A DNA stretch of 64,000 nt from Hermatobates lingyangjiaoensis (lineage: Eukaryota; Arthropoda; Insecta; Hemiptera; Hermatobatidae), in NCBI GenBank assembly GCA_026182355.1, contig JAPFBL010000575.1, positions 165,001 to 229,000 on the forward strand. Reading direction: 5' to 3'. This document shows, in pieces, positions 237-55,008 of the stretch (the stretch's first letter is position 1; each line of letters begins with the position of its first letter). The notes below the pieces were generated by a model. That model did no database searches, was not told the origin of the DNA, and saw only the letters and a list, made by a program, of their open reading frames with translations. The translations under genes were made by a program, and so were the position numbers.

Positions 237-422
237 ATGATCAAACCACAATAAGAAATGGGAAAACAAGACTAAGATCTTTCAACCGTAACAAGCGGTC
301 TTCGTCAGAGTCAAAAACCCAACTGACCCTCGGTTGGGTTTTTGACTCTGACGAAGACCGCTTGTTACGGTTGAAAGATCTTAGTCTTGTTTTCCCATTT
401 CTTATTGTGGTTTGATCATTGA
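235..422. repeat. Inverted Penelope tail dimer (family A palindrome)
   Basis: Two ~88-bp arms are near-perfect reverse complements around a loop of about 10 bases near 328. Each arm carries the family-A tail: a GACTCTGACGAAGACCG stretch, then GAAAG, then the TGTGGTTTGATCATTG end. The tail ends face outward; (TA)n lies directly outside the left arm, and the right arm runs through a TTTCAC...GTGAAAT hairpin into (TA)n at 452. Related copies lie at 14867-15042, 30620-30820 and 25510-25790. Confidence 0.9.
348..377 (+). other. Hammerhead-core-like motif, family A
   Basis: CTGACGAA is followed by stem GACCG/CGGTT (one G-T pair), a CTTGTTA loop and GAAAG. This is one of the covarying instances of the window-wide CTGANGAN-stem-GAAA motif. 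Further family-A copies begin at 14972, 25646 and 28919. Ribozyme activity is not shown by the sequence. Confidence 0.6.
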
Positions 423-451
423 TTGTTATTTCATGTGTTTATGTGAAATCT

Positions 452-489
452 TTATATATATATATTATATATATATATATATATATATC
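452..489. repeat. (TA)n microsatellite
   Basis: TA tract directly 5' of the truncated Penelope copy; the coding frame starts at its edge. Confidence 0.9.
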
Positions 490-491
490 AC

Positions 492-1136
492 CGCCCTACA
501 GCTATAAGGGATCGTAGAATTACTACTCCCTTTATTTCTACTTTTTTCCCAGGCTCCCACAGGCTCGGCGCTGTTATTAGGGAGTTCTTTCCTATACTTT
601 CTTCTTCTTCGTCTACTTCTCCTATTTTCAGTCAGTCCCCTACTTTCTCCTACCGTAGACCTTCCAACCTGAAATCCATTTTTACCCATATTTCCAACAG
701 CCCCTGGGCTAGCAGAGGGATGAAGCGATGTGAACGCCGTAACTGCCAAACCTGTCCCCTAATTAACTCCAGTCCTTACTTTACTTCCCCTCTCAGTAAC
801 GACTCCTATCCTGTTCCTTCTGATACATCTTGCACTTCCTGTAACTGCGTTTACCGTTTGGAGTGTACTCGATGTGATGCTTTTTACGTTGGCTTGGCTT
901 CAACCAAGCTGAGCCTGCGTATGAACAATCACAGGGCGTCCGTTGGTCAGCGCAGAGACCTACCCATAGCTATCCATGCTAATTCCCATGACCTCCCTTT
1001 CAATGATTGTTTCAGGGTACAAATCCTCAAACAAATCCCCGAGTCTAATCCCCATGTCACCCTTAGAGCTTCCGAAGAGGCATTCATATGCCTCCTTGGG
1101 GCTCGTTCTCCTCCTGGTCTCAACCTGTACCGTTAA
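492..1136 (+). pseudogene. Penelope-like ORF fragment: RT C-terminus plus GIY-YIG endonuclease
   Basis: The frame is open for 214 codons from the edge of the (TA)n tract to the stop at 1136, extending well upstream of the first ATG at 720. Seen: YRRPSNLKSIF, typical of the end of the Penelope reverse transcriptase region; then the zinc-binding-like CERRNCQTC; then CVYRLECTRCDAFYVGL in place of the GIY...YIG pair; the catalytic-type Arg in SLRMNNHR; and a Glu-containing end, RASEEAFI...PGLN. In Penelope-like elements the nuclease nicks target DNA to prime reverse transcription. The fingers and palm of the polymerase are missing, so this is a dead 5' truncation, although the nuclease domain itself has no stop or frameshift. 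A close relative lies at 29808-30125. Confidence 0.88.
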
Positions 1137-1137
1137 T

Positions 1138-1262
1138 TATTTTTTATTTTATTTTATTATTATTATTTTATTATTACTATTATTATTATTATTATTATTA
1201 TTATTTTATTATTATTATTTATTTTTTATTATTATTATTTCGTATTTTATATATTTTTTATC
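1138..1262. repeat. TTA/TTTTA-rich microsatellite
   Basis: Imperfect TTA and TTTTA repeats follow the Penelope stop codon. The apparent Leu/Tyr/Phe-rich frames across it are artefacts of the repeat. Confidence 0.85.
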
Positions 1263-1471
1263 TTGTTTTCTAAATAAATATTGGAAGAATTTCTATTTTT
1301 CCTCTCCTCCGCTGGGGAGCAGCATTGCGGTGGTTCCACGAGTTACTCTGGAGGCCAGTAGTAGTTTGCTTCTCAACGCGAGTACTTCGCACTTCTTCCC
1401 GATGACGACGGATGTCGAAATATCGAAGTGAGTTCTGTAGTGTCTTTCTGTGTTCTTTTCTATGCGTTAAA

Positions 1472-1472
<1 letters not shown>

Positions 1473-1504
<32 letters not shown>
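1473..1504. repeat. (TA)n microsatellite
   Basis: Directly abuts the Penelope tail end. Confidence 0.9.
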
Positions 1505-1510
<6 letters not shown>

Positions 1511-1511
1511 A

Positions 1512-1850
1512 CAGGGGTGGGCAACCTTTTTGAGAATGCGTGCCAAAATCGGCCAAGTCTCTGACACAAACTTTTTCCACGTGCCAACCATTTTCTTTTT
1601 TAGAACATATTTGATATCTCTTAAGAGGTTTTTAAACGAAAAAATACTAAATGACCTCAGTGCAGTAAAACATAGTATAAAAAAATAGAAAAAAATGTTT
1701 ATTTTTTTAAATAAACCCTTAAGAACCTTAAGGGTTCTGGTGACATGAATAAAAATTACAGATTGATTAGTTTCGATGTGAAGTCCCTTTTTTACCAATG
1801 TACCTATAACTAATTCTATGTAAATATACCTGATCAAAACTAATGAATCT
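1512..1850. mobile_element. hAT-like terminal fragment
   Basis: Begins CAGGGGTGGGCAACC, a terminus typical of hAT/Charlie-type elements. I could not find the matching inverted terminus, so the inner end is approximate and the copy looks truncated. No coding remnant is visible. Confidence 0.5.
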
Positions 1851-2496
1851 ATAATTGTTATTCATGTACACACACGCTTTTTAATTTTCTAATTAGATCA
1901 ACAGTGTTTTTAATATGGTTGCCTGAAATTTTTCCAATTAATGGGCTTAAAAAAATACTTACTAACCATTTGGACAAGCCATATGATGCCGAACCAACCT
2001 AGCTCACAATCAAACGTATTGGGTAATTATCGTTATGTGTCTTGATGAACCCGTACATATATGGCAATGAAGGGGATTTTGTTAAAAATTTATTAATTTG
2101 TGCGCAATGATTCTCAATTCTCAAAATTTATAACAAATTACTTGCTAATAAAAAAAAGAAAATCATGTAATTTAATTAGACGTTATAAAGAAATAAATAC
2201 TGTCATGGCAATTACCTTTCAAGGTCATTGATGACGTCACATGTAAACAAACACGACAATTTCTTGGAAATAAATTATTCTGAGGTCTCTCTCTTTAATA
2301 CTTTTAATAAAACGATGTCAAGTCTATTGCAATTCAATGAATTTACTTCTAAATTAATTTTAATTATATTCTAGTTAGAAGTTCAAAAGATTTTATTCTT
2401 AGTTTTTCTTTTCTGTGAATAACAAAATGTGAAACATTTTTTTTTTGATTCGTAAAGAATTTTTAATAGAAATTTTTCAAAACAAATTCAATCGTA
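1851..2496. other. AT-rich sequence, nothing recognised
   Basis: No open frame, terminus, tRNA-like box or tandem structure that I can support. Confidence 0.5.
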
Positions 2497-3597: not shown

Positions 3598-3755
3598 ACT
3601 GAAGGACAGACAGCTAATGTTTTGTATACAGGGTCATTTGCTTAACACTGTACTAATAATGGTATTTTCTACTATTCTATAATTTCTAATTATAGTATTA
3701 GTATAATACTATAATTAAATTCATGCATTTTTTCATTACCACAGAGGTTAGTATC

Positions 3756-4120
3756 ATTAATATTAAAATTATAGTAATCCGTCTTACCTCGTACCCTGCT
3801 GCTGAAGTTCTTAGACCGGTTTCGGGCGTCACCCATCTTCAACAAGAACTGATCAACTAAAACTACGGAGTCCTACCTTTCTGTTTATATAACCTACCTT
3901 CTTTCCCAATGCTGCCTAGATTTTTTTATTTAGGCAGCAGATTATTCTATTAAAATCTAGGCAGCATTGGGAAAGTAGGTAGGTTATATAAACAGAAAGG
4001 TAGGACTCCGTAGTTCTAGTTGATCAGTTCTTGTTGAAGATGGGTGACGCCCGAAATCGGTCTAAGAACTTCAGCAGCAGGGTACGAGGTAAGACGGATT
4101 ACTATGATTTTAATATTAAT
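3756..4120. repeat. Penelope tail palindrome nested in the Helitron
   Basis: Two ~165-bp arms, reverse complements around a ~35-base loop at about 3925-3957. The right arm carries TTGAAGAT, a GGG/CCC stem and GAAAT, then GAGGTAAGACGG. Flanks differ from other Helitron copies, as expected for an insertion. The loop is the left breakpoint of the 4.3-kb duplication. Confidence 0.85.
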
Positions 4121-4211
4121 AATACTATAATTGGTATGGTATTCCATGGTATTTTGGAATACCAAGTATAATAGAATTTTTGATTCCGTCAAAGACGGGT
4201 ACGTTTGCTAG

Positions 4212-4900
4212 TTATTAAATAAAATATTATTTGAAATGGATTTTTTTTTTAATTGTCATAATTATTTTTAAAAAGGTTAGAAAATATTATTAAATGAAGG
4301 AGAAAAAGGGTGAGAAAATATTCCTCGTTTAATAATATTTACTAAACGAGTTATTTTTAGATATTCTCGACAGTAATGAAAGAGTTTTTATAGATACGTT
4401 TCAACCATTGTACTGAGCTCTTTCAAGGGAATAAAATTAATTTAAAAATGTTACAGCTGAAAGAAAAAAAAACTTGATATTTTAATTTTGTATAAATTAA
4501 ATGTCCTTTTGTGTTTATTAAACAGTGAATATATTATTATTAAAGTTTAAAATTTTTGATATAATTTGAAATGAAATGAATATTGTTTACTGTTCATTTC
4601 TCAAAAGTTATTATTGTTAATAATGTTATTTTAAATATTTAATCTTGAACTCCTAAAGTGTCTTTATATCAAATACAGCATAGAATCAAGAACCTGCAAA
4701 ATGATGTTTTTCGTATTTTTTTCGGTCTGATTAATTTAATTAATTAAATTTATTTTAATTAATTAGTTTAATTACTTTATGTAAAATATAGAATCACGAA
4801 GGAATTGTATTCGGGTCAAATAGAAATACTCCGTTGCCAACGTTTTGGTTTGATTTAAAATAATTAGAGATTAGAGAACACACCTATTTATAATATATAT
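4212..4900. other. AT-rich filler, nothing recognised
   Basis: Runs of AATTAATT and weak self-complementary stretches only. Present in both copies of the segmental duplication. Confidence 0.5.
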
Positions 4901-4903
4901 ATA

Positions 4904-4989
4904 TAATGACGAACAACAGTTCGAAATATTGAATTCTGTAAGTTTTCTTTGTATTGTCTTTTCTGTGTCGTGCTTTGTGTAATTTAAAG

Positions 4990-5023
<34 letters not shown>
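4904..5023 (+). mobile_element. Penelope tail fragment ending in (TA)n
   Basis: ATGACGAAC, an AACA loop and GTTCGAAAT begin the fragment; AATTTAAAGT runs into (TA)n (4990-5023). It is the same family as the minus-strand tail at 10940-11032. Confidence 0.7.
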
Positions 5024-5028
<5 letters not shown>

Positions 5029-5450
5029 TGTGTTCTCTAATCGGGGTTCGGTCAATTTTCCAGGATAAAAAATGAAACTCTCGTTGCCAACGTTTCGGTT
5101 TTATTTAAAACCTTTTTCATAGGCAGAAGTAAGAATTTTTTAACTAAGAAAATGAAATTTACATTATTTAAAGGAACAACAATGTAGCTGGACAAAACCT
5201 TCGACTAGACTAATAGATAACATTACAAATAACCTAGGTTATTTGTAATGTTATCTTATTAGTCTAGTCGAAGGTTTTGTCCAGCTAACATTGTTGTTCC
5301 TTTAAATAATGTAAATTTCATTTTCTTAGTTAAAAAATTCTTACTTCTGCCTATGAAAAAGGTTTTAAATAAAACCGAAACGTTGGCAACGAGAGTTTCA
5401 TTTTTTATCCTGGAAAAATTGACCGAACCCCGAGTAGAGAACACACCTAT
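5024..5450. repeat. 427-bp Penelope tail palindrome
   Basis: Near-perfect palindrome centred on TAACCTAGGTTA at about 5230. Each arm holds the tail family with CCTATGAAAAA, stem GGTTTT/AAAACC and GAAACGTTGGC, ending GAGAACACACCTAT. On the left that end touches (TA)n. There is almost no spacer at the centre. Duplicated at 21372-21798. Confidence 0.9.
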
Positions 5451-5536
5451 TCTATCAAACGGTCGATATATTATTGAATCTGTTATATATAGTATATAAT
5501 ATTTATTGATAAAAAGTATGTACCGTGGAAGAGAAA

Positions 5537-5649
5537 CAAAACTAAAGTTTATCGGGACTCGGTCAGTTCTCAGGTTCAAATTAAACTAATAAATTAAGTT
5601 TAATTTGAACCTGAAGAACTGACCGAGTCCCGATAAACTTTAGTTTTGT
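5537..5649. repeat. Short tail palindrome
   Basis: Arms carry the AACTGACCGAGTCCCG end around an AAACTAATAAATTAAGTTT centre. The right arm leads into TA repeats. Duplicated at 21885-21997. Confidence 0.85.
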
Positions 5650-5677
5650 ATATATATATATATTGACCAATATATAT

Positions 5678-6815: not shown

Positions 6816-7165
6816 CCTTGAAAATGCTAAACAACTTTTGGCGAAACGTCGGCATATAATCAGGAAATAACACTGGGTATTTTATGATCCTTTTGAGGTT
6901 TTCTTGTTACTAAATTTTTGTTTTCTGTTGGTTGGTATTTCCTTGGATGTCTTGCTCTTTATATGTCGTTAATAAATAGTTTTTTTTTTTTAGCCTTGAA
7001 AATGCCAAACAACTTTTGGCGAAACGTCGGCATATAATCAGTATTTTATATCTGTGATTTTGGAAAGTAATGTTAGTCCCATTGATGATACAGCCATTGC
7101 GAAAACCGGTCGAGCGACTTCACCAGCGATAGACGAGGTATGACGGTTAATAATGATATCTTATA
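6816..7165 (+). mobile_element. Penelope tail fragments
   Basis: Two direct copies (about 6816-6860 and 6992-7042) of TTGAAAAT, a GC(C/T)AAA/TTTTGGC stem and GAAACGTCGGC. A further tail follows with GAAAACCGGTCGAGC and GAGGTATGACGG, ends shared with the tails at 11200, 24740 and 47130. In the first class the hammerhead C3 and G8 positions read T and A, which could still pair. Confidence 0.65.
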
Positions 7166-10570: not shown

Positions 10571-10936
10571 CAATGTTTTGTTATTGAGGGCTAGGTCAAA
10601 TAAAAGAAAATAAACTCCTTTCTAGGCCGACGTTTCGATGTATTTGTACATCATCTTCAGGGCTAAAAATTAGAGTAAGACTATAATACATTTATCAAAA
10701 CAATCTACAACTCACATAGAGAACTAACACACATTTTTTTAAGACTTAAGACTTTTTAAGACATCTTAAAAAATGTGTGTTAGTTCTCTATGTGAGTTGT
10801 AGATTGTTTTGATAAATGTACTATAGTCTTACTCTAATTTTTAGCCCTGAAGATGATGTACAAATACATCGAAATGTCGGCCTAGAAAGGAGTTTATTTT
10901 CTTTTATTTGACCTAGCCCTCAATAACAAAACATTG
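10571..10936. repeat. Penelope tail palindrome, GATGTA family
   Basis: Arms of about 165 bp, outer ends CAATGTTTTGTTATTGAGGG and its complement, centre near 10750. Each arm carries CTGAAGAT, stem GATGTA/TACATC, loop CAAA and GAAAC or GAAAT. The minus-strand tail at 29010-29130 is the same family and lies behind a GIY-YIG remnant, which identifies the family as Penelope-like. Confidence 0.88.
10847..10875 (+). other. Hammerhead-core-like motif, GATGTA/TACATC stem
   Basis: CTGAAGA, one T, a 6-bp stem GATGTA/TACATC closed by CAAA, then GAAAT. The mirrored copy in the left arm is at 10632-10660. Confidence 0.6.
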
Positions 10937-11240
10937 AATATATAACTTTAAATTACACAAAGCACGACACAGAAAAAACAATAAAGATAACACTTACAGA
11001 ATTCAATATTTCGAACTGTTGTTCGTCATCAGGAGTAGACTAGAAGAGAGGACGAAGTGAGAGAGATCTCCCCAAGTCGATGAACGGAGCGCGATTGATT
11101 CGTAAGATGACGTTGGAGTCTTTGGAGTGCCATCTTCGATCGCAGTAAACCTACTCTTTAGAAGATGGACATACGTCCGAAAGCGCTCCAACGACTCTAA
11201 GATCATCTTACGAGATATGACGGTTTTATCCTATTTCTAA
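10937..11240 (-). mobile_element. Penelope tail fragments (two families)
   Basis: 10940-11032 (minus) is a tail with CTGATGAC, stem GAAC/GTTC and GAAAT. 11060-11240 carries the CCGAAAGCGCTCCAACGACT tail with GAGATATGACGG, ending near a TACTAATCTCAGTGG end, also seen at 24695-24790. Confidence 0.7.
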
Positions 11241-13829: not shown

Positions 13830-14805
13830 TGTTGACCAATGGGAGTAGAGTTACAGGTCCAAGCGTGAGGTCCCAGTTGCCCGCTGCTCAGCAAAAAGCC
13901 TTTGCGTTCTGCCAATAGGTATAGAGGTTGCACAGTCCCTCTGTGTTAAATGATGTTTGGCAGAAAACATTAGCCTCACTTTACAGTGAACTCCTGTTCC
14001 CTTTCTATTTTTGATTTTTGTGGTGGTTGGGTGTTGCTGAGCAGCGGGCAACTGGGACCTTACGCTTGGACCTGTAACTCTACTCCCATTGGTCAACATC
14101 GCATCGAATCATATTCCTTTCCCCGGACAACCCATAGAAAACTGTATATAAGGACCAACGTCTGGGCCATTTCCTTGCCTGAAGATAACCAGAGAATGGT
14201 TGAAAACATGTCGCAAATACCACCACCAGGTCAACAGTGCAGAACTTTTCATCACCTACCAACCACCCATCAATAGCAGCAATAACATTCAACTGAGAAA
14301 AAACATGAACATAAGAAACCGAAGAGAACAATATACAAAACCTACAACTTGAAGATGTTTCTACGAGAAGAAGTTGGATTCCAGTGTCAACATCTCTTCA
14401 TTCATCTCTTCTGATTATCAACATCAATAATCAAGAGGGACTGTGCAACCTCTACCCCTGTTGGCATGAAGATGAAGGCGGCTTTTCGCAGTAAACAACC
14501 GAGAGTATCTTTAAATATCCTGCAATATCCGTAACAGAAATAGTAAACAACAGCAACACCCAACCACCACAAAAATCAAAAATAGAAAGGGAACAGGAGT
14601 TCACTGTAAAGTGAGGCTAATGTTTTCTGCCAAACATCATTTAACACAGAGGGACTGTGCAACCTCTATACCTATTGGCAGAACGCAAAGGCTTTTTGCT
14701 GAGCAGCGGGCAACTGGGACCTCACGCTTGGACCTGTAACTCTACTCCCATTGGTCAACATCGCATCGAATCATATTCCTTTCCCCGGACAACCCATAGA
14801 AAACT
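13830..14805. mobile_element. Penelope-type terminal repeat (pLTR-like) as an inverted pair
   Basis: The left arm (about 13830-14040, minus) is the reverse complement of 14547-14765 (plus). A third partial copy (14036-14150, plus) leads into 14151-14400, which has a TATATAAGG stretch, then TTGCCTGAAGATAACCAG...TGGTTGAAAAC, a covarying copy of the motif. Outer edges are (TA)n at 13820 and 14808. The sequence is less AT-rich than its surroundings. Frames crossing it do not resemble known proteins and I do not call them. Confidence 0.7.
14179..14206 (+). other. Hammerhead-core-like motif, AACCA/TGGTT stem
   Basis: CTGAAGA, one T, stem AACCA/TGGTT closed by GAGAA, then GAAAAC and ATGTCG. Same layout as the motif at 42671. 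Confidence 0.55.
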
Positions 14806-15929: not shown

Positions 15930-16200
15930 TATAGTTCAATATAAACAAAGAAACATAGAGAAATCAGAAGAACACACTTACAGTCTCTAATTTTCGGTTT
16001 GAACCGTCTTCAGGAGAGATAAGAGAGGGAAATCAAGCGCACTGGATCAGAGACGGTTGGAGGTTGGTCTCCAACCGTCTCTGATCCAGTGCGCTTGGTT
16101 TCCCTCTCTTATCTCTCCTGAAGACGGTTCAAACCGAAAATTAGAGACTGTAAGTGTGTTCTTCTGATTTCTCTATGTTTCTTTGTTATATTGAACTATA
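15930..16200. repeat. Penelope tail palindrome, GGTT/AACC family
   Basis: Arms ~130 bp, centre near 16065 (GGTTGGAGGTTGGTCTCC). Each arm has CTGAAGAC, stem GGTT/AACC, GAAAATTAGAGA, and an end TTGAACTATA running into (TA)n. Relatives at 53635-53846 and single arms at 13330-13450 and 32990-33060. Confidence 0.9.
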
Positions 16201-20267: not shown

Positions 20268-21337
20268 ATTTTTTTATTTAGGCAGCAGATTATTCTATAT
20301 TAAATCTAGGCAGCATTGGGAAGTAGGTAGGTTATATAAACAGAAAGGTAGGACTCCGTAGTTCTAGTTGATCAGTTCTTGTTGAAGATGGGTGACGCCC
20401 GAAATCGGTCTAAGAACTTCAGCAGCAGGGTACGAGGTAAGACGGATTACTATGATTTTAATATTAATAATACTATAATTGGTATGGTATTCCATGGTAT
20501 TTTGGAATACCAAGTATAATAGAATTTTTGATTCCGTCAAAGACGGGTACGTTTGCTAGTTATTAAATAAAATATTATTTGAAATGGATTTTTTTTTTAA
20601 TTGTCATAATTATTTTTAAAAAGGTTAGAAAATATTATTAAATGAAGGAGAAAAAGGGTGAGAAAATATTCCTCGTTTAATAATATTTACTAAACGAGTT
20701 ATTTTTAGATATTCTCGACAGTAATGAAAGAGTTTTTATAGATACGTTTCAACCATTGTACTGAGCTCTTTCAAGGGAATAAAATTAATTTAAAAATGTT
20801 ACAGCTGAAAGAAAAAAAAACTTGATATTTTAATTTTGTATAAATTAAATGTCCTTTTGTGTTTATTAAACAGTGAATATATTATTATTAAAGTTTAAAA
20901 TTTTTGATATAATTTGAAATGAAATGAATATTGTTTACTGTTCATTTCTCAAAAGTTATTATTGTTAATAATGTTATTTTAAATATTTAATCTTGAACTC
21001 CTAAAGTGTCTTTATATCAAATACAGCATAGAATCAAGAACCTGCAAAATGATGTTTTTCGTATTTTTTTCGGTCTGATTAATTTAATTAATTAAATTTA
21101 TTTTAATTAATTAGTTTAATTACTTTATGTAAAATATAGAATCACGAAGGAATTGTATTCGGGTCAAATAGAAATACTCCGTTGCCAACGTTTTGGTTTG
21201 ATTTAAAATAATTAGAGATTAGAGAACACACCTATTTATAATATATATATATAATGACGAACAACAGTTCGAAATATTGAATTCTGTAAGTTTTCTTTGT
21301 ATTGTCTTTTCTGTGTCGTGCTTTGTGTAATTTAAAG

Positions 21338-21371
<34 letters not shown>

Positions 21372-21376
<5 letters not shown>

Positions 21377-21798
21377 TGTGTTCTCTAATCGGGGTTCGGT
21401 CAATTTTCCAGGATAAAAAATGAAACTCTCGTTGCCAACGTTTCGGTTTTATTTAAAACCTTTTTCATAGGCAGAAGTAAGAATTTTTTAACTAAGAAAA
21501 TGAAATTTACATTATTTAAAGGAACAACAATGTAGCTGGACAAAACCTTCGACTAGACTAATAGATAACATTACAAATAACCTAGGTTATTTGTAATGTT
21601 ATCTTATTAGTCTAGTCGAAGGTTTTGTCCAGCTAACATTGTTGTTCCTTTAAATAATGTAAATTTCATTTTCTTAGTTAAAAAATTCTTACTTCTGCCT
21701 ATGAAAAAGGTTTTAAATAAAACCGAAACGTTGGCAACGAGAGTTTCATTTTTTATCCTGGAAAAATTGACCGAACCCCGATTAGAGAACACACCTAT
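21372..21798. repeat. 427-bp Penelope tail palindrome (duplicate)
   Basis: Second copy of the 5024-5450 palindrome, centred on CCTAGG at about 21583, and flanked by (TA)n at 21338-21371. Confidence 0.9.
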
Positions 21799-21884
21799 TC
21801 TATCAAACGGTCGATATATTATTGAATCTGTTATATATAGTATATAATATTTATTGATAAAAAGTATGTACCGTGGAAGAGAAA

Positions 21885-21997
21885 CAAAACTAAAGTTTAT
21901 CGGGACTCGGTCAGTTCTCAGGTTCAAATTAAACTAATAAATTAAGTTTAATTTGAACCTGAAGAACTGACCGAGTCCCGATAAACTTTAGTTTTTG
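21885..21997. repeat. Short tail palindrome (duplicate)
   Basis: Second copy of 5537-5649. Confidence 0.85.
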
Positions 21998-22631: not shown

Positions 22632-24039
22632 CAAAAAAAGTTAATGTGGCTGGTACAGTCCATCTCATATGATGTAAGCTCAAAAAAAAAGAAAAAAAAG
22701 TTTCGCTTTTTAGCCATGCTAATAGAATTAAACTGTACAAAATAACTCGAGACTCTGAATTCTGGGAAAATCTATCCAACACTTTTAGTATTTACCAATA
22801 GTTTGAAAAAAATGTTTAAATCTTTCAAAGAATTAATAAATAGAAATTAGAATTGAACTTCATATCAAAATAATACAGTGTGTTCGGAAAGGTACTGTGC
22901 ACTCATAGTTTTAGCGAATTAATGTAACCTGAGAGAGATGGAACTCTGCTTCGTTGATGAAAAAGGTTATATTCAACACATTCAGTCGTATTCTCTTATA
23001 TAAAATAGCTCATTAATTGTGCAATCTGTTATAGTGTGGTATTTACTCATATTTTGGGAAAGTATTATGTCTCCACACAATAACAATGTTCTAGTGAGGT
23101 ATTAACTCATATTGGGGAAAGTGTTTTGGTCTCCACACAAAAACAATGTTATAGTGTGGTATTTACGCATATTGGGGAAATTATTCTGGTCTAGAAATTT
23201 GAAAATGCTAAACAACTTTTGGCGAAACGTCGGCATATAATCAGGAAATAACACTGGGTATTTTATGATCCTTTTGAGGTTTTCTTGTTACTAAATTTTT
23301 GTTTTCTGTTGGTTGGTATTTCCTTGGATGTCTTGCTCTTTATATGTCGTTAATAAATAGTTTTTTTTTTTTAGCCTTGAAAATGCCAAACAACTTTTGG
23401 CGAAACGTCGGCATATAATCAGTATTTTATATCTGTGATTTTGGAAAGTAATGTTAGTCCCATTGATGATACAGCCATTGCGAAAACCGGTCGAGCGACT
23501 TCACCAGCGATAGACGAGGTATGACGGTTAATAATGATATCTTATATAATCTGAAGTTGAATTTTTATGACAAAAATCCTCAAGAACCCCTTCTATTATA
23601 ATTTTATTTAATTTTCAATAATGTTGTATCTTTATTATAATCTTAAAGGAAGAGAATAGTGAATCCTATTGAATTCAGTATCTAAAGAAAAGGTCTAAAG
23701 GTTCTTTTCAAATGAAAAGAAAGGAACAGTCATTACGTTAAAGCCCGTATTTCAGTGATTTATTTCTTAGGGGAAGAATTCAAAGTGTTGAATGACAGAA
23801 ACTTTTGTTTTCTGGAAAATTACTTGTTAATAAAAAGGGAAAAATGAGGAAAAACGAGTAGCTAAAAAATAAATTTAAGAATTTTTAATTAAAAGCTAGT
23901 TGGAATTATCTCACTGGATGCCCTTTTAATATGTTTTAATTTAAAAATTGATTCTATGTTTGTAAATTTGATTTAGGTTAAGTTGCAGAGGTAGTTATAC
24001 GAGAGAACACACACAGGTTGAATATTGGCCATTTGTGAT

Positions 24040-24629: not shown

Positions 24630-24800
24630 TTGTCAATCTTCAATCGCAACTAACTTTTAGTTTAGGAGGTTAGTTGCGATCGAAGATTGACAACGTCCGA
24701 AAACGCTCCAACGACTCCAAGATCATCTTACGTGGTACGACGGTTTGCCGTATTAATAATACGAGTATAAATCATACTTACCTCAGTGGTAATAATAATA
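24630..24800. mobile_element. Penelope tail with a 65-bp palindrome
   Basis: 24630-24694 is a palindrome (TTGTCAATCTTC... and complement, centre AACTTTTAGTTTAGGAGGTT). The tail continues with GTCCGAAAACGCTCCAACG, GGTACGACGG and the TACTTACCTCAGTGGT end. Matches 11160-11260. Confidence 0.75.
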
Positions 24801-24829
24801 TGCATGTACTTATTTAGGAGCTCTCCATA

Positions 24830-29009: not shown

Positions 29010-29765
29010 CTATGTTTTGTTATTGAGGGCTAGGTCAAATAAAAGAAAATAAACTCCTTCCTAGGCCGACGTTTCGATGTATTTGTACATCATCTTCAGG
29101 GCTAAAATTAGAATAAGAACTATAAAGAACATTTACCAAAACAATTTACAACTCACATAGAGAACTAACAAAAATTTTTTTAAGACCAACAGATACATAC
29201 AAAAGGTTATTTTATAATCAGAGTCATCTATTTCAAAGTATTAGACAAAAGGAAATTAGTTTTACTTTGGAAAGTGTGCTAATGGTTATTTAAGTTACAT
29301 GAGAATTAATTGGTTATAGGTACGAAAAACACTACTTGTTATATTCATCTATCATTTCAACAAAACAGGGTGGGTGAACATATGAAGGTTACATAAAGAA
29401 AGGTTAGTTTATGACTAAAGGTTATCATCCATGTTACAATGATTTACTATTGTTATTATGACTGGTGATGGGAAAGAATGTTTGTATAAATATGGCTAAA
29501 CTTTTCAATATCAGACCTCGAATTACCAGTGTTAGGAGTTTTCTGTATGTGTATCATTTATTTTATTATTCTTTTCCCAGGTCCTGCTTCCATGTCAATG
29601 ATTTTGGAATTTGTAAGGTCAAAAGTGTTATTTAAAGAGAGGGCATGTTTTGCTAAGGCACATGTAATATTCTTTTTCTTAATATCCGTTTTGTGTTGTG
29701 CCAATCTATTTCCTAAGTACTGACTAGTTTGTCCTATATATGTATGTCATGTTGCAATTTGTGCA

Positions 29766-39563: not shown

Positions 39564-39871
39564 CATCATGATTTGTGTTCTTGACCCAGTATTTATATGA
39601 TGTAATTTTTTGTGGGTTGAGGTCCAATGATTTTAAACTAGTCCCTTTGCGGACGTTTCGACATATATTTATGTTATCTTCAGGGCTTGGAAATCTGTTT
39701 ATGTTGCAGCATACCTATTTACTACAGTAGCCATCATGTAACAGTAGTAAATAGGTATGCTGCAACATAGACAGATTTCCAAGCCCTGAAGATGACATAA
39801 ATATATGTCGAAACGTCGGCAAAAGGACTGGTTTAAAATCATTGGACCTCAACCCTCAAAAAATTACATCA
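39564..39871. mobile_element. Penelope palindrome insertion with 13-bp target duplication
   Basis: Arms start at 39595 and end at 39874, centre near 39735. The right arm has CTGAAGAT, GACATA/TATGTC and GAAACGTCGGC (39786-39814). TATTCAGAATAAA flanks it at about 39551-39563 and 39872-39884, and the Helitron relative lacks the insert. The left end extends further (CATGATTTGTGTTCTTGACC) than the right. A relative lies at 53886-54190. Confidence 0.82.
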
Positions 39872-39884
39872 TATTCAGAATAAA

Positions 39885-41339: not shown

Positions 41340-41482
41340 TTTTAATGAAGAAACGAGGAGGAATTCGGGAAACTGATGAAATTATGTATGAAACAGATAC
41401 AAGCCAAATATGGGGCGTTATTTAACATTATATGTTAAAATGAAGGACTGCTTCCAAATTTTACAAATATATATATATAATA
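41340..41482 (+). pseudogene. Penelope N-terminal fragment, frameshifted
   Basis: Nucleotide match in the opposite orientation to 40610-40745 (GATACAAGCCAAATATGGGG ... GGACTGCTTCCAA ... TTACAAATATATATA). It ends in TA repeats at the same codon. Confidence 0.7.
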
Positions 41483-41831
41483 AAAACTTTTTCTTCTTCT
41501 TGGAGTTTGGTCAGGGTTAATATACGGAATCACTTTTTCGCCAACGTTTCGTCTTTATTTTAAGACATCCTCAGGGCTATAAACTAACAAAAAAACAATG
41601 GACATTTGTCATATCTACTTTACAATCATCATAACAAATTCAGAAAACTTATTTACTCTTACTTACTTACTTTGAATTTGTTATGATGATTGTAAAATAG
41701 AGATGACAAATGTCCATTGTTTTTTGTTAGTAAATAGCCCTGAGGATGTCTTAAAATAAAGACGAAACGTTGGCGAAAAGGTGATTCCTTATATTAACCC
41801 TGAAGAAACTCTAAGAAGAAGAAAAAGTGTT
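41482..41831. repeat. Penelope tail palindrome, GTCTT/AAGAC family
   Basis: Arms ~150 bp, centre near 41660. The right arm has CTGAGGAT, GTCTT/AAGAC and GAAACGTTGGCG (41740-41768). Confidence 0.85.
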
Positions 41832-41863
41832 TATTAGTAAATTGCGGCCAAGAAAACAATACC

Positions 41864-42500: not shown

Positions 42501-42670
42501 AGTTCACATCAAGGGCATCCAGAAACCCTTGCAGGTAGCGACTCGGCCGAAAGGCCACTCACCCCACAGGATTAACGCCCACCATTTCTTAAACTTTATG
42601 GAAAACAACCCATTCTACCTTCTCCATGTATATATAAACCAGATATTTCAGTTTAGATCTTATTTACGTC

Positions 42671-42698
42671 CTGATGATGAATGTTGATCATTCGAAAC
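42671..42698 (+). other. Hammerhead-core-like motif, GAATG/CATTC stem
   Basis: CTGATGA, one T, stem GAATG/CATTC, loop TTGAT, GAAAC. It sits between the GIY-YIG remnant (42190-42500) and an N-terminal fragment (42722-42820), so its place in the element is clear. Confidence 0.65.
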
Positions 42699-42721
42699 AT
42701 GTCGTCTATAGGAGATGTACT

Positions 42722-43943: not shown

Positions 43944-44306
43944 AGCTTTTCCAGCGAATTGGAGTCCGGTGGTATTTATAAAATTCTGTGGAAAAATTGC
44001 CATAAAATTTATATTGGTCAAACTGGTAAATTATTAAAGACACGTGTAAAACAACACCAATATAACGTAAGTAGACAGGAAAAAAGTAGTGCCTTATTCT
44101 TGCATATAAAAAATGAAAATCATCATATTGATTGGACAGGAGCTAAATTTATTACCTATGAAAAATCAATGCTGTTAAGAAATATTATTGAATCGTCTCT
44201 AATTAAATTTAATAGATCTAATATTATAAACATTAGTAACGGTCTCTTCAAACTTGATACTTTCGTTACGAGGGCAATAGCCTCTTCAAAGAGGGTTGAC
44301 AGCTAG
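43944..44306 (+). pseudogene. Penelope GIY-YIG endonuclease, intact domain, 5' truncated
   Basis: Open from just after a stop at 43941 to the stop at 44304-44306. GGIYKILWKNCHKIYIGQTG has a textbook GIY...YIG pair. LKTRVKQHQYNVS supplies the Arg-His part, and MLLRNIIESSLI the Glu helix. A different subfamily from the 720 and 42190 copies. The polymerase is missing and no ATG is required for this fragment, so it is probably not expressed alone. Confidence 0.85.
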
Positions 44307-46380: not shown

Positions 46381-46654
46381 GTAGGGTAAAAAGTTAATGA
46401 AATGGTCTCCACATATAAAAATGTTAATGGTATAAACCACGCGTTTCGAACGCATAGTGTTCTTCTTCAGGCATTAGCTAAAAAAAAATACAATTACATC
46501 ACAGTGGCTCTGATGTCATTGTACGAAACATCACTGTGATGCAATGTATTTTTTTTAGCTAATACCTGAAGAAGAACATATGTGTTCGAAACGCGTTGTT
46601 TATACCATTAAAATTTGTGTATGGGGAGACCATTCCATTAACTTTTTACCCTAC
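46381..46654. repeat. Penelope tail palindrome, GAACA/TGTTC family
   Basis: Arms ~125 bp, ends GTAGGGTAAAAAGTTAATG and complement. The right arm has CTGAAGAA, GAACA/TGTTC and GAAACGCGTTG (46566-46592). Siblings at 48122-48360 and a single arm at 48590-48716. Confidence 0.88.
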
Positions 46655-48121: not shown

Positions 48122-48360
48122 GGGTAAAAGCCAATGAAATGGTCTCCACATAGAGAAATCGTATAAACAACGCGTTTCGAACACGTAGTGTTCTTCCTCA
48201 GGCATTAACTAAAAGTTAATTGTTAATTAACCTCAGTCCGTTGTACCATAGACACTCACTCTTAGTTAATGCCTGAGGATGGACACTACGTGTTCGAAAC
48301 GCGTTGTTTATACCATTAAATGTTTACATGCAGAGACCATTTCATTAACTTTTTATCCTA
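48122..48360. repeat. Penelope tail palindrome, GAACA family
   Basis: Arms ~100 bp, centre near 48240, with GAAACGCGTTG in the right arm. A point change gives GGATGGACACTACGTGTTC in place of GAAGAACAC. Confidence 0.85.
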
Positions 48361-48589: not shown

Positions 48590-48716
48590 CATGCAGTTGT
48601 ACCATATGAGCACTCACCCTTTGTTACTGACACTCACCCTTAGTTAATGCCTGAGGAAGAACATTACGTGTTCGAAACGCGTTGTTTATACCATTAAATT
48701 GTTATATGTGGAGACC
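48590..48716 (+). mobile_element. Penelope tail, GAACA family
   Basis: CTGAGGAA, GAACA/TGTTC and GAAACGCGTTG, then GGAGACCAT, where the LINE 3' end begins. Confidence 0.75.
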
Positions 48717-49955: not shown

Positions 49956-50870
49956 TTATATAATTTTCAAACGATTAGAATTTCACTTCAATATTTCGAC
50001 TTTGTCGTCATCAGGAGAAGGAAGAGAAGAAGAAGAAGAAGAAGAAGAAGAAGAAGAGTTCTGCTTTGTTGGCAAACTGCAACGAGCAAAACTCATGTTC
50101 TTGTTCTCCTGATGACGAAGACGAGGTCGAAATATTAAAGTGAGTTGTGTGTTGTTAAATACGTGTTTTTATACAACTCACTTCGATATTTCGACTTCTT
50201 CGTCATCAAGATAATGAGGAGAAGAAGAACATGAGTTCTGCTCGGCAAGCAAACAGCAACGAGCAGAATATTTAGACTTCGTCGTCATCAGGGGAATGAG
50301 GAGAAGAAGAAGATGAGTTCTGCTCGACTGATAAACAGCAACGAGCAGAATTCATGTTCTTCTTCTCCTGATGACAACGAGATCGAAATATTAAAGTGAG
50401 TTGTGTGTTGTTAAATACGTGTTTTTATACAACTCACTTCGATATTTCGACTTCTTCGTCATCAAGATAATGAGGAGAAGAAGAACATGAGTTCTGCTCG
50501 GCAAGCAAACAGCAACGAGCAGAATATTTAGACTTCGTCGTCATCAGGGGAATGAGGAGAAGAAGAAGATGAGTTCTGCTCGACTGATAAACAGCAACGA
50601 GCAGAATTCATGTTCTTCTTCTCCTGATGACAACGAGATCGAAATATTAAAGTGAGTTGTGTGTTGTTAAATACGTGTTCTCACACAACTTACTTCGATA
50701 TTTCTACTTCGTCATCAGGAGAAAGAGGAGAAGAAGAGGAGTTCTGCTTGGCTGGCAAACAGCAAAGAGCAGAATTCATGTTCTTCTTCTCCTGATGACG
50801 ACGAGATCGAAATATTAAAGTGAGTTGTACGAGTATGTTGTTTCAACGTGTTTTTTTTTATTCTAATCGT
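49956..50870. mobile_element. Cluster of inverted Penelope tails with a tandem duplication
   Basis: Repeated minus/plus arms around CTGATGAC-GA...TC-GAAAT (for example 50109-50133). Inner sequence is GAGGAGAAGAAGAA with GTTCTGCTCG. About 243 bp (50171-50413) is repeated directly at 50414-50657. A (GAA)n run lies at 50018-50056. Confidence 0.85.
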
Positions 50871-51212: not shown

Positions 51213-51223
51213 TAATATATATA

Positions 51224-51267: not shown

Positions 51268-51272
<5 letters not shown>

Positions 51273-51334
51273 TTCAAAGGCGGTGAAATGTTCACAAATG
51301 ACAATTAGAAGAAACGATTCTTCGAACTGAATAA

Positions 51335-51542
51335 ACTAGAATTTAAAAAAGAACACATTAGAAAGGAAACCACTGAACTCACTACTATATTTCGATGTCC
51401 TCGTCTTCAGGAATAGAAGTAAATCGCTCCAAAGTCGTTATCAGCCTTTGGAGCGATTCACTTCTTTTCCTGAAGACGAGGACATCGAAATATAGTAGTG
51501 AGTTCAGTGGTTTCCTTTCTATGTGTTCTTTTTTAAATTCTA

Positions 51543-51546
<4 letters not shown>
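51335..51546. repeat. Penelope tail palindrome
   Basis: Arms ~100 bp around GTCGTTATCAGCC near 51437. The right arm has CTGAAGAC then GAGGACATC and GAAAT (51470-51491); only a 2-bp stem is certain. (TA)n at 51548 touches the right end. Confidence 0.85.
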
Positions 51547-51581
<35 letters not shown>

Positions 51582-51584
<3 letters not shown>

Positions 51585-52066: not shown

Positions 52067-52082
52067 TATATATATATATATA

Positions 52083-52260
52083 TATACCATGATAAACGAA
52101 AAAAGGTCCGGCAGGACAGATAACACTTAAAATAAAGTGTGACATATAGACTTAAACATAACAAAGACGCACTTTTCAATATTTCGACCGTAATGGCGGT
52201 CGTCCTCAGGAGAAGAAGTGAATTGACGGAGGGACGACAGTCAACTAAAAGTAACAAACT
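52083..52260 (-). mobile_element. Penelope tail, GACCG/CGGTC family
   Basis: The minus strand has CTGAGGAC, stem GACCG/CGGTC, loop CCATTA, GAAATATTG (52181-52209). Confidence 0.7.
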
Positions 52261-52289
52261 AAAACAGTTGATTTTAAGTATATATATAT

Positions 52290-52490
52290 ACTTAATGTTG
52301 AGGTTAGCCTATATATCCTAAGGTACGTCATAACCTAGCGTCAACAGTTAGGCTAGGCTCTTTTTTCGTTAAATACATGCATATTGTTAATACCACTGAG
52401 GTTAGTATGATTTATATTAGAAATAGGTAAAACCGTCATACCTTGTAAGATGATCATGGACTTTTTTTTGTTCATTATAAGGTTTATTAT
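52290..52490. repeat. Dispersed repeat with Penelope-type end
   Basis: Matches 56348-56545: TGAGGTTAG, GTCAACAGTTAGGCT, CCACTGAGGTTAGTATGATT, CCGTCATACCTTGTAA. Confidence 0.75.
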
Positions 52491-52545
52491 ATATATATAT
52501 ATATATATTATAACAAATTCAATAATATATCAACCGTTGGATAGA

Positions 52546-52978: not shown

Positions 52979-52993
52979 ATATATATTATATAT

Positions 52994-53522
52994 AACTAAA
53001 AAATGATTGATCGGGATGCGGTCAGTTTCTTCCACGTTTTAATTCAAACTCTCATTGCCGACGTTTCGATTTTATTCAAAATCTTTTTCATAGGCCTACA
53101 AACAGAGGAAAACAAGAATTTTAATACGTACATTTTTAAAACACAAACAAAAGAAGTACACTATGAAAATTAAATACAATCTTGAGTATTAGGATAACAA
53201 TGACAGAATAATAAAAAAAAAACTACTTATGTACCTACTTATGTAAGTACATTGTAAAAAAACTTTTGTTTTTATAGTTAGACTCCATCTCTTTCTCTTT
53301 TTTATTATTCTGTCATTGTTATCCTAATACTCAAGATTGTATTTAATTTTCATAGTGTACTTCTTTTGTTTGTGTTTTAAAAATGTACGTATTAAAATTC
53401 TTGTTTTCCTCTGTTTGTAGGCCTATGAAAAAGATTTTGAATAAAATCGAAACGTCGGCATGAGAGTTTGAATTAAAAAGTGGAAGAAACTGACCGCATC
53501 CCGATCAATCATTTTTTAGTTG
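52994..53522. repeat. 529-bp Penelope tail palindrome
   Basis: Arms ~220 bp with an unpaired centre of ~60-90 bp (53215-53290). Tail with AAAATCGAAACGTCGGCA; ends AACTAAAAAATGATTG and complement. Confidence 0.88.
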
Positions 53523-53634
53523 TATATCTGTCACACGGTCGAGAAGTTATTAGTGTTTATATATTATATATATATATAATTTTTATATATATATATACTT
53601 TTTCGTTGGAAATACGATCCAAAACGAACAAATA

Positions 53635-53840
53635 TAGCTCAATATAAACAAAGAAACACAGAGAATCAAAAGAACACACTTACAGTCTCTAATTTTCGGT
53701 TTGAACCGTCTTCACGAGAGATAAGAGAGGTAAACCAGTACCAGTGCGCTTGGTTTCTCTCTCCTGAAGACGGTTCAAACCGAAAATTAGAAACTGTAAG
53801 TGTGTTCTTTTGATTTCTCTATATTTCTTTGTCTATATTG

Positions 53841-53846
<6 letters not shown>
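53635..53846. repeat. Penelope tail palindrome, GGTT family
   Basis: Arms ~95 bp. One arm has lost part of its centre (GTACCAGTGCGCTTGG). The right end meets (TA)n at 53846. Confidence 0.85.
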
Positions 53847-53885
<39 letters not shown>

Positions 53886-53892
<7 letters not shown>

Positions 53893-54190
53893 TAATTTTT
53901 TTTGAGGTTTGAGGTCCAATGATTAAAACTAGTCCTTTTGCCGATGTTTCGACATAATCCATAGTCGTAATAACTGTTTTATCAATAAGTTCCTCTTTGT
54001 TACCGAACATATTAAAATGTAATAAATTACCAAATATTAGTAATAGTAGTGCTAATTGTAAAACAATCATGTTGTAGCCCTGAAGATGACATAAATATAT
54101 GTCGAAACGTCGGCAAAAGGACTAGTTTTAATCATTGGACCTCAAACCTAAAAAAAATTACATCATATAAATATTGGGTCAAGAAAACAA
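53886..54190. repeat. Penelope tail palindrome, GACATA family, partly rebuilt
   Basis: Outer arms TATGATGTAATTTTTTT and complement. The right motif is at 54080-54108. The left arm breaks after TTTCGACATAATCC, so the palindrome is incomplete inside. The end GGGTCAAGAAAACAAATCATG matches 39567-39600. (TA)n lies on both sides (53846-53885, 54198-54243). Confidence 0.82.
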
Positions 54191-54205
54191 ATCATGATAT
54201 ATATA

Positions 54206-54243
<38 letters not shown>

Positions 54244-54246
<3 letters not shown>

Positions 54247-54840
54247 GAATGGGAGAGGGAATGAGTTTGTGTGAGTGAGTAGTATAGTGGGTGAAGAAAG
54301 GTTGACAAAGTTAGGGAGGGAATGAGAGGAAAGATTGAGAACCAGTCATTCAGTGAGAAATTGAAGGGAGAGGCTGAAGTAGGAAGTAAGAGAGGTAGAG
54401 CATGATGTTTAGGAGAAAGAAAGAGATAGATTGAGTGGAGGGGGTCAGAGGCTTCCCCCTCCACTATCACGAAGCGTTAGACTTTCAAGTCATATTTTCT
54501 TAACTGCTTATATTCAGCTGTAATTAATATTTATGTTTCAGTGGTTTTTTTTATTTATTTACGACTAAATATTTACAATTAAGAAGTTTAATCATGATAT
54601 GTTTTTTCCACATTTAGTTTATAATTATCACAGGCAGGGAGAAAGAAAGAGATAAACTATAAGACTGAACAGGTAGATAAACACAGAAAGGAAAAGAGGA
54701 AGAGAGATAGCGATAAAGAAAGAAAACGAGGAGAAGGGGGTAGGGATAGCACGAGTGAGAGATAAAGATAGAAAACCGATCACGTTACCTCTTTCTTTCT
54801 TTCTTGTTTTGTATCTACTGCTTTATTCTACAGTGTCGAA
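54244..54840. other. Purine-rich and AT-rich filler
   Basis: GA-rich plus strand (AGGGAGGGAATGAGAGG etc.) at 54244-54450 and 54630-54770. No supported gene. Confidence 0.5.
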
Positions 54841-54880
54841 CAAGTATTTAATTACAATGACAATATATATATAGTTTAGC

Positions 54881-55008
54881 AGACACACTTACAAACTCAA
54901 ATTTTCGGTTGATCCGTCTTCAGGAGAAAAGAGAGAAATATACTTCACCCATTCTCTCTTTTCTCCTGAAGACGGATCATCCGAAACTTTGAGTTTGTAA
55001 GTGTGTCT
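54881..55008. repeat. Penelope tail palindrome, GGAT/ATCC family
   Basis: Arms ~60 bp around CTTCACCC. The right arm has CTGAAGAC, GGAT/(A)TCC and GAAAC (54966-54987). Confidence 0.85.

What the first reader, a model, noticed from the sequence alone, without database searches (positions are those of the whole stretch)
348..54987. One covarying RNA-like motif shared by at least eleven unrelated Penelope tail families
Seen: CTGANGA, one base, a 4-6-bp hairpin, then GAAA. Stems differ completely but stay paired: GACCG/CGGTT (348), GATGTA/TACATC (10847), GAAC/GTTC (11009-11032, minus), AACCA/TGGTT (14179), GGTT/AACC (16118), GACATA/TATGTC (39786), GTCTT/AAGAC (41740), GAATG/CATTC (42671), GAACA/TGTTC (46566), GACCG/CGGTC (52181-52209, minus), GGAT/ATCC (54966). 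Sequence around the motif is unrelated between families. Known: hammerhead ribozymes have the core CUGANGA-stem II-GAAA, and Penelope-like elements carry hammerheads. Odd: here one extra base always sits between CUGANGA and the stem. Inference: a derived or alternative catalytic or RT-recognition RNA, possibly no longer cleaving.
Basis: partly seen in the sequence, partly recalled or inferred. Interest (0 to 1): 0.9.

Follow-up and report, generated by a model that had tools for sequence, protein, structure and literature searches.

The report
Dimer-type hammerhead ribozymes in Penelope retroelements
The repeated RNA motif is a known kind of small self-cutting RNA (a hammerhead ribozyme) carried by the tails of Penelope retrotransposons; in this genome it appears in many versions that nearly all carry one extra base in the core, a base known from one plant viroid to change cutting speed.

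Summary
A strict scan allowing spacers 0-3 finds 15 motifs in the window, all with exactly one base between CUGANGA and stem II, against 0.03 per shuffle; relaxed scans give 42. Right after GAA, 16 of 20 representatives have a perfect 4- or 6-base palindrome A...U (background 35 of 560), followed in 16 of 16 by a residue other than G, and the flanks re-pair as stem I (P about 5e-5). This is the type I, short-stem-III hammerhead already reported from Penelope-like elements (PLEs) and said to act as a dimer. Stem II covaries. The extra base has a precedent, residue 10 of a chrysanthemum viroid hammerhead, where U10 speeds and C10/G10 impair cleavage (PMC3705267). Here N10 is U, A or C, hardly ever G (1 of 121 copies). 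C10 copies mostly precede a splice-donor-like site (28 of 35, against 3 of 82 others). A few multi-copy families have U3-A8 for C3-G8, also with precedent (PMC3088659). So it is a known ribozyme class; 'no longer cleaving' is not supported in general. Two key PLE papers were not held, so whether the constant N10 is in print is open.

The parts
342..384 (+). hammerhead motif F11 (A10; stem III AGAUCU; stem I GACU/AGUC), right half of a head-to-head twin
272..314 (-). F11, left half of the twin with 342-384
10625..10666 (-). hammerhead F2 (U10; stem III ACGU; stem I GCC/GGC), left half of twin
10841..10882 (+).
11001..11038 (-). hammerhead F9 (C10; stem III AUAU), splice-donor-like GTAAGT 15 nt after G12
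14173..14213 (+). hammerhead F7 (U10; ACAUGU one base further on; stem I UUGC/GCAA)
15984..16019 (-). hammerhead F12, left half of twin
16112..16147 (+). hammerhead F12 (C10; stem III AAUU; A17; donor-like GTAAGT)
29064..29105 (-).
39648..39689 (-). F1, left half of twin
39780..39821 (+). hammerhead F1 (U10; stem III ACGU; C17; stem I GCC/GGC); its 35-base stretch from C3 occurs 1,977 times exactly in the genome
41539..41580 (-). hammerhead F3, left half of twin
41734..41775 (+). hammerhead F3 (U10; ACGU; U17)
   Evidence: the representative is the minus-strand copy
42665..42705 (+). hammerhead F5 (U10; stem III ACAUGU); stem I only 1 bp here, 16 bp in its relative L027:9813-
46436..46476 (-). 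hammerhead F8, left half of twin
46560..46599 (+). hammerhead F8 (A10; stem III ACGCGU)
48167..48207 (-).
48645..48685 (+).
52174..52215 (-). hammerhead F10 (C10; stem III AUAU); a copy lies 3' of an open PLE reading frame in L041
54074..54115 (+).
54895..54929 (-). F13 relative, left half of twin
54960..54994 (+). hammerhead F13 (C10; ACUU, not a palindrome; donor-like GTAAGT), 3-bp stem II
3795..3870 (-). hammerhead-like F18 in a PLE N-terminal tail (U3, U10, stem III ACCGGU, 8-bp stem I); not reported by the covariance model at E up to 1
6990..7032 (+). variant-core motif with U3-A8 (UUGAAAA), stem I GCC/GGC
23371..23413 (+). second window copy of the U3-A8 family
5347..5388 (+). variant-core family a (GCC-UA-UGAAAA), with an inverted copy at 5085-5126 minus
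3714..3842 (-). PLE ORF N-terminal tail remnant (residues 1-43)
   Evidence: tblastn
24683..24811 (+). PLE ORF N-terminal tail remnant (residues 2-42)
   Evidence: tblastn
52368..52460 (-). PLE ORF N-terminal tail remnant (residues 13-43), no motif seen
56424..56516 (-). PLE ORF N-terminal tail remnant (residues 13-43), no motif seen
1861..2091 (-). PLE reverse-transcriptase remnant
   Evidence: tblastn
43950..44192 (+). PLE GIY-YIG endonuclease remnant
   Evidence: tblastn
29474..29740 (-). PLE C-terminal remnant (L034 lineage)
   Evidence: tblastn

Best explanation
The motifs are type I hammerhead ribozymes in the terminal repeats ('tails') of many PLE families. Each has stem I, CUGANGA, one inserted residue N10, a freely varying stem II hairpin, GAA, and a very short stem III that is usually its own reverse complement, then U16.1 and H17 (the cleavage site). 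A 4-base palindrome cannot close as a hairpin, so stem III must form between two copies; cleavage would therefore be by a dimer, as reported for PLE hammerheads. N10 is not a new catalytic centre. It is an insertion that a hammerhead is known to tolerate, and its identity probably tunes the rate: U10 or A10 permissive, C10 attenuated, C10 being the form next to a splice-donor-like site, where early cleavage would destroy the pre-mRNA. Shown here: architecture, covariation, spacing, palindromes, link to PLE coding sequence, C10-donor association. Inferred: cleavage in vivo, dimer action in this species, use of the donor, and the tuning role of N10.
For: Spacing and enrichment: 15 of 15 spacer 1 in the window and 7 of 7 in another 200 kb; 51 hairpin + GAAA + palindrome sites chosen without core or spacer give a core match of at least 5 of 6 only at spacer 1 (19 sites). 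Stem II: 64 of 64 cells paired, covariation 0.944 against 0.258 shuffled and at most 0.158 when slid (most families were chosen with a stem). Stem III and site: 16 of 20 palindromes directly after GAA against 35 of 560 background positions, next residue C 8, U 6, A 2, G 0. Stem I: mean 3.75 bp against 1.38 for swapped families with the same freedom (one representative has 16 bp, without it the mean is 3.1). Covariance model: 79 matches with E at most 0.0093 in 264 kb (146 up to E 1), against 0 (7 up to E 1) in 291 kb of prokaryote DNA picked to hold a core-like pattern (14 of the 16 model sequences lie in that 264 kb, and the control is not matched in base composition). PLE link: a motif with altered core at the ORF start and in the tail of open RT + GIY-YIG copies L039, L040, L042; motifs beside PLE sequence in L031, L033, L037, L038, L041. 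PLE hammerheads are minimal type I, lack helix III, may cleave as dimers (PMC7761336 passages); a lizard PLE hammerhead cleaves in vitro only with its protein (PMC11167929). N10 precedent: PMC3705267 passages.
Against: No cleavage was shown. Rfam gives no hammerhead match at E up to 10. Stem I is only 0-2 bp in 7 of 20 representatives, and 4 of 20 have no exact palindrome. The U16.1/non-G rule was used in choosing the offset for stem I, so for the four non-palindromic representatives it is no independent evidence. Nearest-neighbour energies favour the drawn double hammerhead over two monomers in only 2 of 11 families. N10 can pair with G12 in 14 of 16 aligned sequences, which would block the active core if it formed. 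Several multi-copy families lack C3 or G8, so cleavage may be dispensable.
Confidence: 0.88

Rival explanations
1. A structural, no longer cleaving hammerhead relic: the fold is kept as a protein-binding, RT-start or RNA-dimerisation signal, and catalysis has been lost because of N10 and core changes.
For: Open copies L039/L040/L042 (about 99% identical protein) have an altered position 3 region but keep stem II, GAAA, an AGCGCU palindrome and C17. Families a, b, c share an altered core across copies. In PLE PAc, ribozyme mutants did not affect insertion in vitro.
Against: Most aligned copies keep the core pair: 99 of 121 have C3-G8 (the search model favours them). U3-A8 hammerheads are active (PMC3088659 passages) and U10 raises cleavage in the viroid. 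No G follows the palindrome in 16 of 16 representatives, as expected of a cleavage site.
Confidence: 0.2
2. The palindromic stem III is mainly an RNA dimerisation element that brings two template RNAs to one dimeric PLE protein, giving head-to-head twin insertions by priming on both target strands.
For: Of 36 neighbouring motif pairs within 400 bp, 23 are divergent (-+) against 6, 4 and 3. Units have tails outward and inner arms of varied length. PAc cuts and extends both DNA strands and is modelled as a dimer.
Against: Head-to-head inverted repeats are already known in PLEs and explained by self-priming on an antisense template (PMC3846280 passages). A simple search found no convincing target-site duplication around 19 twins. 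No direct evidence of RNA dimers.
Confidence: 0.12
3. Chance or low-complexity matches in AT-rich repeat DNA.
For: The core heptamer is common (64 in the window against 21.5 per shuffle), and copies of one family are not independent.
Against: 0.03 hits per shuffled window; 6 hits in 10 shuffles of 264 kb against 73; about 20 families with different stems.
Confidence: 0.01
4. There is no extra base: N10 and residue 12 form the first pair of stem II, in a non-hammerhead hairpin.
For: RNAalifold pairs column 14 with column 32; 4 of 29 core-selected hairpins are longest with spacer 0.
Against: N10 is A in F8 and F11, which cannot pair with G12; GAAA stays the same while N10 varies (A1; GAAA was required in selection); stems I and III are as in hammerheads.
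Confidence: 0.04

Closest known systems
Small hammerhead variants of Penelope-like elements (Cervera & De la Pena 2014; Lunse, Weinberg & Breaker 2017; neither held, known here from citing papers and recall)
   Same: Type I order, stem III reduced to a few bases, in PLE terminal repeats, thousands of dispersed copies, proposed dimer cleavage (PMC7761336 passages; title of Lunse et al. in reference lists)
   Different: All motifs passing the strict scan here have one residue between A9 and stem II; I could not check whether those papers describe it.
Chrysanthemum chlorotic mottle viroid plus-strand hammerhead
   Same: One extra residue (A10) between A9 and G10.1; self-cleaves; rate depends on its identity (PMC3705267 passages)
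   Different: Viroid RNA with loop-loop contacts; there N10 is A, here U, A or C.
PAc (Poseidon, Anolis) PLE hammerhead
   Same: Ribozyme at the ORF start; [quoted passage not shown] cut site 26 bp after the start codon, the A9-to-C17 length of F1 (my count)
   Different: Sequence not held, so its N10 was not seen; cleavage needed the PLE protein.
Hammerheads with U3-A8 (Perreault et al. 2011, PMC3088659 passages)
   Same: The core pair C3-G8 replaced by U3-A8 in nature
   Different: There several scattered hammerheads; here tail families b and c, with N10 as well.
Metazoan retrozymes and axolotl/newt hammerheads (PMC7229834 passages)
   Same: Type I; in amphibians a weak stem III with a palindromic loop, more active as dimers
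   Different: Tandem satellite-like repeats giving circular RNAs, not inverted PLE tails.

Membership tests
Hammerhead ribozyme, type I | Core CUGANGA ... GAA | tested here: met
   15 strict hits (selected for it); of 51 sites chosen without the core, 16 have it in full and 19 at 5 of 6 or better; 99 of 121 aligned copies have C3-G8
Hammerhead ribozyme, type I | Stem II hairpin with covariation | tested here: met
   unselected sites
Hammerhead ribozyme, type I | No residue between A9 and stem II (standard consensus, recalled) | tested here: not met
   One residue in 15 of 15 and 7 of 7; tolerated in an accepted viroid hammerhead
Hammerhead ribozyme, type I | A15.1-U16.1 and residue 17 not G | tested here: met
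   16 of 20 representatives have a palindrome A...U after GAA, next residue non-G in 16 of 16; for the other 4 the rule was used to place the site, and A15.1 comes with the GAAA used for selection
Hammerhead ribozyme, type I | Stem I enclosing the core | tested here: met
   mean 3.75 bp against 1.38 swapped, P about 5e-5; but 0-2 bp in 7 of 20
Hammerhead ribozyme, type I | Match to Rfam hammerhead models | tested here: not met
Hammerhead ribozyme, type I | Self-cleavage at residue 17 | not testable with these tools
   needs RNA assay
PLE dimer-type hammerhead | Palindromic or minimal stem III | tested here: met
   16 of 20 exact palindromes against 35 of 560 background
PLE dimer-type hammerhead | Located in PLE terminal repeats | tested here: met
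   ORF start and tail of L039, L040, L042 (altered core), beside PLE sequence in five other loci; for several window families only by similarity of layout
Penelope-like element | RT plus GIY-YIG in one ORF | tested here: met
   GIY-YIG at the L040 place over Pfam's cut-off in the six-frame search (29.5 bits) but not in hmmscan of the protein at E up to 1; RT-like stretch (PDB E 0.0035) and I-TevI-like stretch (E 0.064); L040 is homologous to L034 (tblastn E about 1e-17), which has GIY-YIG at 4.9e-9; YVDD and GIY by eye
Penelope-like element | Inverted and direct pseudo-LTRs, head-to-head layout | tested here: met
   23 of 36 neighbouring pairs -+
Retrozyme | Tandem non-coding repeats giving circular RNA | not tested
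   no RNA data; layout is mostly inverted pairs

The most novel reading that the evidence does not exclude
In PLE hammerheads residue 10 acts as a rate dial set by life cycle: U10/A10 in families that cut their tandem RNAs freely, and C10 in a clade whose ribozyme abuts a 5' splice site, so that slow cutting lets splicing come first. The palindromic stem III doubles as an RNA dimerisation signal for two-strand insertion, so the fold persists even where the core has changed.
Probability: 0.15. Interest if true: 0.72.

Novelty: new member of a known kind. Interest (0 to 1): 0.42.

Why it matters
It shows an abundant ribozyme that Rfam does not see in this genome, gives about 20 families in which the role of residue 10 can be tested, and offers a natural series (C3-G8, U3-G8, U3-A8; U10, A10, C10) for asking what the still unknown role of hammerheads in Penelope elements is. 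A rough extrapolation from 200 kb is 100,000-270,000 motifs in the genome.

Tried and rejected
Rfam at gathering and at E up to 10 gave no hammerhead; the best matches listed are sub-threshold, mostly miRNA-type hairpins, several lying on the inverted tails.

A pattern scan of viral and prokaryote contigs for PLE hammerheads of other species gave mostly chance matches. The one viral match tested did not match a hammerhead model, so they are no positive control.

A structure prediction of the L040 protein from a single sequence failed (mean pLDDT 36) and was not used. Cofolding of dimers was inconclusive to unfavourable. No convincing target-site duplications were found around twins.

The idea that U3-A8 is new was dropped after PMC3088659; the idea that head-to-head twins are new was dropped after PMC3846280. 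Whether N10 in PLE hammerheads is in print: searches were seen as listings, and passages or sections of 12 papers were read (PMC6155905, PMC11167929, PMC10085705, PMC7229834, PMC11014351, PMC6466107, PMC7761336, PMC3846280, PMC6431247, PMC3088659, PMC3705267, PMC3185496); I saw no statement of it there. The two main papers are not held.

Full report
Checking the observation. A scan that let the spacer be 0, 1, 2 or 3 found 15 motifs in the window, every one with spacer 1, while 100 dinucleotide shuffles gave 0.03 on average. In 200 kb from five other contigs the same kind of scan (spacers 0-4) found 7, again all spacer 1. Relaxed criteria give 42 motifs in the window and 40 in the 200 kb. That sample came from contigs C1-C5 at places I chose, so the extrapolation to about 182,000 per genome (bootstrap 100,000-273,000) is rough. 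One exact 35-base stretch of F1 occurs 1,977 times in the 910-Mb genome and its reversed form not at all. A looser scan (wobble pairs, stems of 3) over window, sample and fetched loci gave 85 of 93 with spacer 1 (L029 and L035 left out beforehand).

Is the stem real? On 16 representatives the four stem II pairs are formed in 64 of 64 cells, with 21 cells changed on both sides and a covariation score of 0.944, against 0.258 in shuffles and at most 0.158 when slid. Most of these had been picked with a stem, so I repeated the test without that: sites chosen only by core + GAA + palindrome + non-G number 73 in 264 kb against 6 in 10 shuffles, and the mean stem is 2.11 bp at spacer 1 and 0.08-0.48 at spacers 0 and 2-5; 27 are best at spacer 1, 2 at spacer 4, and 44 have no Watson-Crick stem of 3, of which 25 are F11 copies with a G-U pair. 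Sites chosen by hairpin + GAAA + palindrome, without core or spacer, number 51; a core match of 5 or 6 out of 6 occurs only at spacer 1 (19 sites). At 4 of 6 there are 39 at spacer 1, 1 at spacer 0 and 18 at spacer 4, the last mostly a low-complexity family that also scores at spacer 1; 8 have no core of 4. Against: when GAAA is not required, 29 core-selected hairpins give spacer 1 in 21, 0 in 4, 2 in 2 and 3 in 2, and GAAA follows in 18; in the four with spacer 0, N10 pairs with residue 12.

In 16 of 20 the bases directly after GAA are a perfect palindrome (ACGU, ACAUGU, ACGCGU, AGAUCU, AAUU, AGCU, AUAU, ACCGGU, AGCGCU), against 35 of 560 background positions (binomial P 2e-16), and the next residue is C 8, U 6, A 2, never G. 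The other four (F4, F7, F13, F16) are AUGU, AACAUGU, ACUU and AGACCU. Upstream and downstream flanks pair next to the core as stem I: mean 3.75 bp against 1.38 for swapped families, permutation P about 5e-5; the site was allowed to slide and had to be U + non-G, in real and swapped pairs alike. Seven of 20 have only 0-2 bp; L027:9813- has 16 bp. F5 and F5b are one family. The order stem I - CUGANGA - stem II - GAA - stem III - UH - stem I is that of a type I hammerhead. A 4-base palindrome cannot fold back on itself, so stem III has to form between two copies (inference).

Which element? The genome holds many GIY-YIG copies: 142 matches among the 150 candidates scored, of 9,198 first-look candidates, some in open frames of 800-850 aa. 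L039, L040 and L042 are about 99% identical in protein. L040 matches a reverse transcriptase and the I-TevI endonuclease weakly in the PDB; hmmscan of the protein finds neither domain, though the six-frame search put GIY-YIG at this place over the cut-off. The L034 lineage, homologous to it, has GIY-YIG at 4.9e-9. In L039, L040 and L042 a motif with altered position 3 lies at the ORF start and again in the 3' tail. Motifs also lie beside PLE sequence in L031, L033, L037, L038 and L041, and the window holds PLE N-terminal tails, RT and EN remnants. Motifs form divergent twins: 23 of 36 neighbours within 400 bp are -+, P 9e-7. Inverted, head-to-head pseudo-LTRs with an optional tail are a known PLE feature (PMC3846280 passages).

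The extra base. Standard hammerheads have none (recalled). The plus hammerhead of chrysanthemum chlorotic mottle viroid has A10 between A9 and G10.1; it slows trans-cleavage moderately, C10 and G10 are very harmful, and U10 raises the rate 3-4 fold (PMC3705267 passages, reporting De la Pena & Flores 2001, not read). Here N10 is U 12, C 6, A 2, G 0 among 20 representatives, and A 45, C 38, U 37, G 1 among 121 aligned copies. A GTRAGT donor-like site lies 11-15 nt after G12 in 6 of 20 representatives against 1.4% of windows. By copy (117 of 126 could be read), 28 of 35 C10 copies have it, against 2 of 37 U10, 1 of 44 A10 and 0 of 1 G10; by representative the association is weaker (4 of 6 against 2 of 14, P 0.037). 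This is probably one clade, so it is one observation rather than many. In PAc the ORF starts at stem II and the cut lies 26 bp after the start codon (PMC11167929, section 3 read); A9-U10-G10.1 of F1 would be such a start codon and A9 to C17 is 26 nt (my count), but PAc's sequence was not seen.

Core variants. With a covariance model (R1, built from 16 representatives, 14 of which lie in the DNA searched) there were 79 matches at E 0.0093 or less in 264 kb and none in 291 kb of prokaryote DNA (40 of the 116 stretches were searched; 7 matches up to E 1). Among 121 aligned copies of 126, positions 3 and 8 are C-G 99, U-A 10, A-A 6, U-G 3, and one each of C-C, G-G, C-A. U-A occurs in family b (GCCAAAC; 7 copies in window, L014, L033, L037), family c (2 copies, L023) and one copy of family a. 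Perreault et al. 2011 reported U3-A8 in nature, its activity in vitro, and insertions near C3 that impair cleavage (PMC3088659 passages). So these are known kinds of deviation. The model favours canonical cores, so the proportion is biased.

Mechanism. The best-supported reading is a PLE hammerhead that cuts as a dimer, perhaps helped by the PLE protein as in PAc, where ribozyme mutants did not affect insertion in vitro. N10 can pair with G12 in 14 of 16 sequences on the consensus fold (U-G 9, C-G 5); this might hold the core closed until protein or a partner opens it. That is an inference. The role of PLE hammerheads is described as unknown (PMC7761336 passages).

Limits. No RNA data; no second species; the genome-wide search tool answered only; the two key PLE hammerhead papers are not held, so 'constant N10' may already be in print.

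Noticed in passing
window 26567-27820 +: 417-aa open frame with CENP-B-type and Tc5 transposase DNA-binding domains.
   Followed up: partly
window 4001-5650 and 20349-21998: Internal duplication at offset 16,348; further shared motifs at 6990/23371 and 7434/23815 suggest it extends with small indels.
   Followed up: partly
window, 13 twin units, e.g. 39595-39874, 41478-41836, 51333-51546: Short units made of two hammerhead tails in head-to-head orientation, 128-388 bp in 12 of the 13 (the pair 50718/50792 did not align cleanly), tails 32-150 nt from C3; they look like solo inverted pseudo-LTR pairs.
   Followed up: yes
L039, L040, L042: Open, very similar PLE reading frames whose motif has an altered position 3 region while stem II, GAAA and an AGCGCU palindrome are kept.
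   Followed up: partly
C10 families, e.g. window 11001-11038, 16112-16147, 54960-54994, 49986-50820: Splice-donor-like GTRAGT at a nearly fixed distance after the ribozyme.
   Followed up: partly
L029, L035: Contigs of the same assembly whose long frames look bacterial by eye (not tested), so the assembly may contain bacterial contigs.
   Followed up: no
L007:1-1200: 400-aa reverse transcriptase frame (RVT_1, 7e-27), by eye not of PLE type, just upstream of an F1 twin.
   Followed up: no
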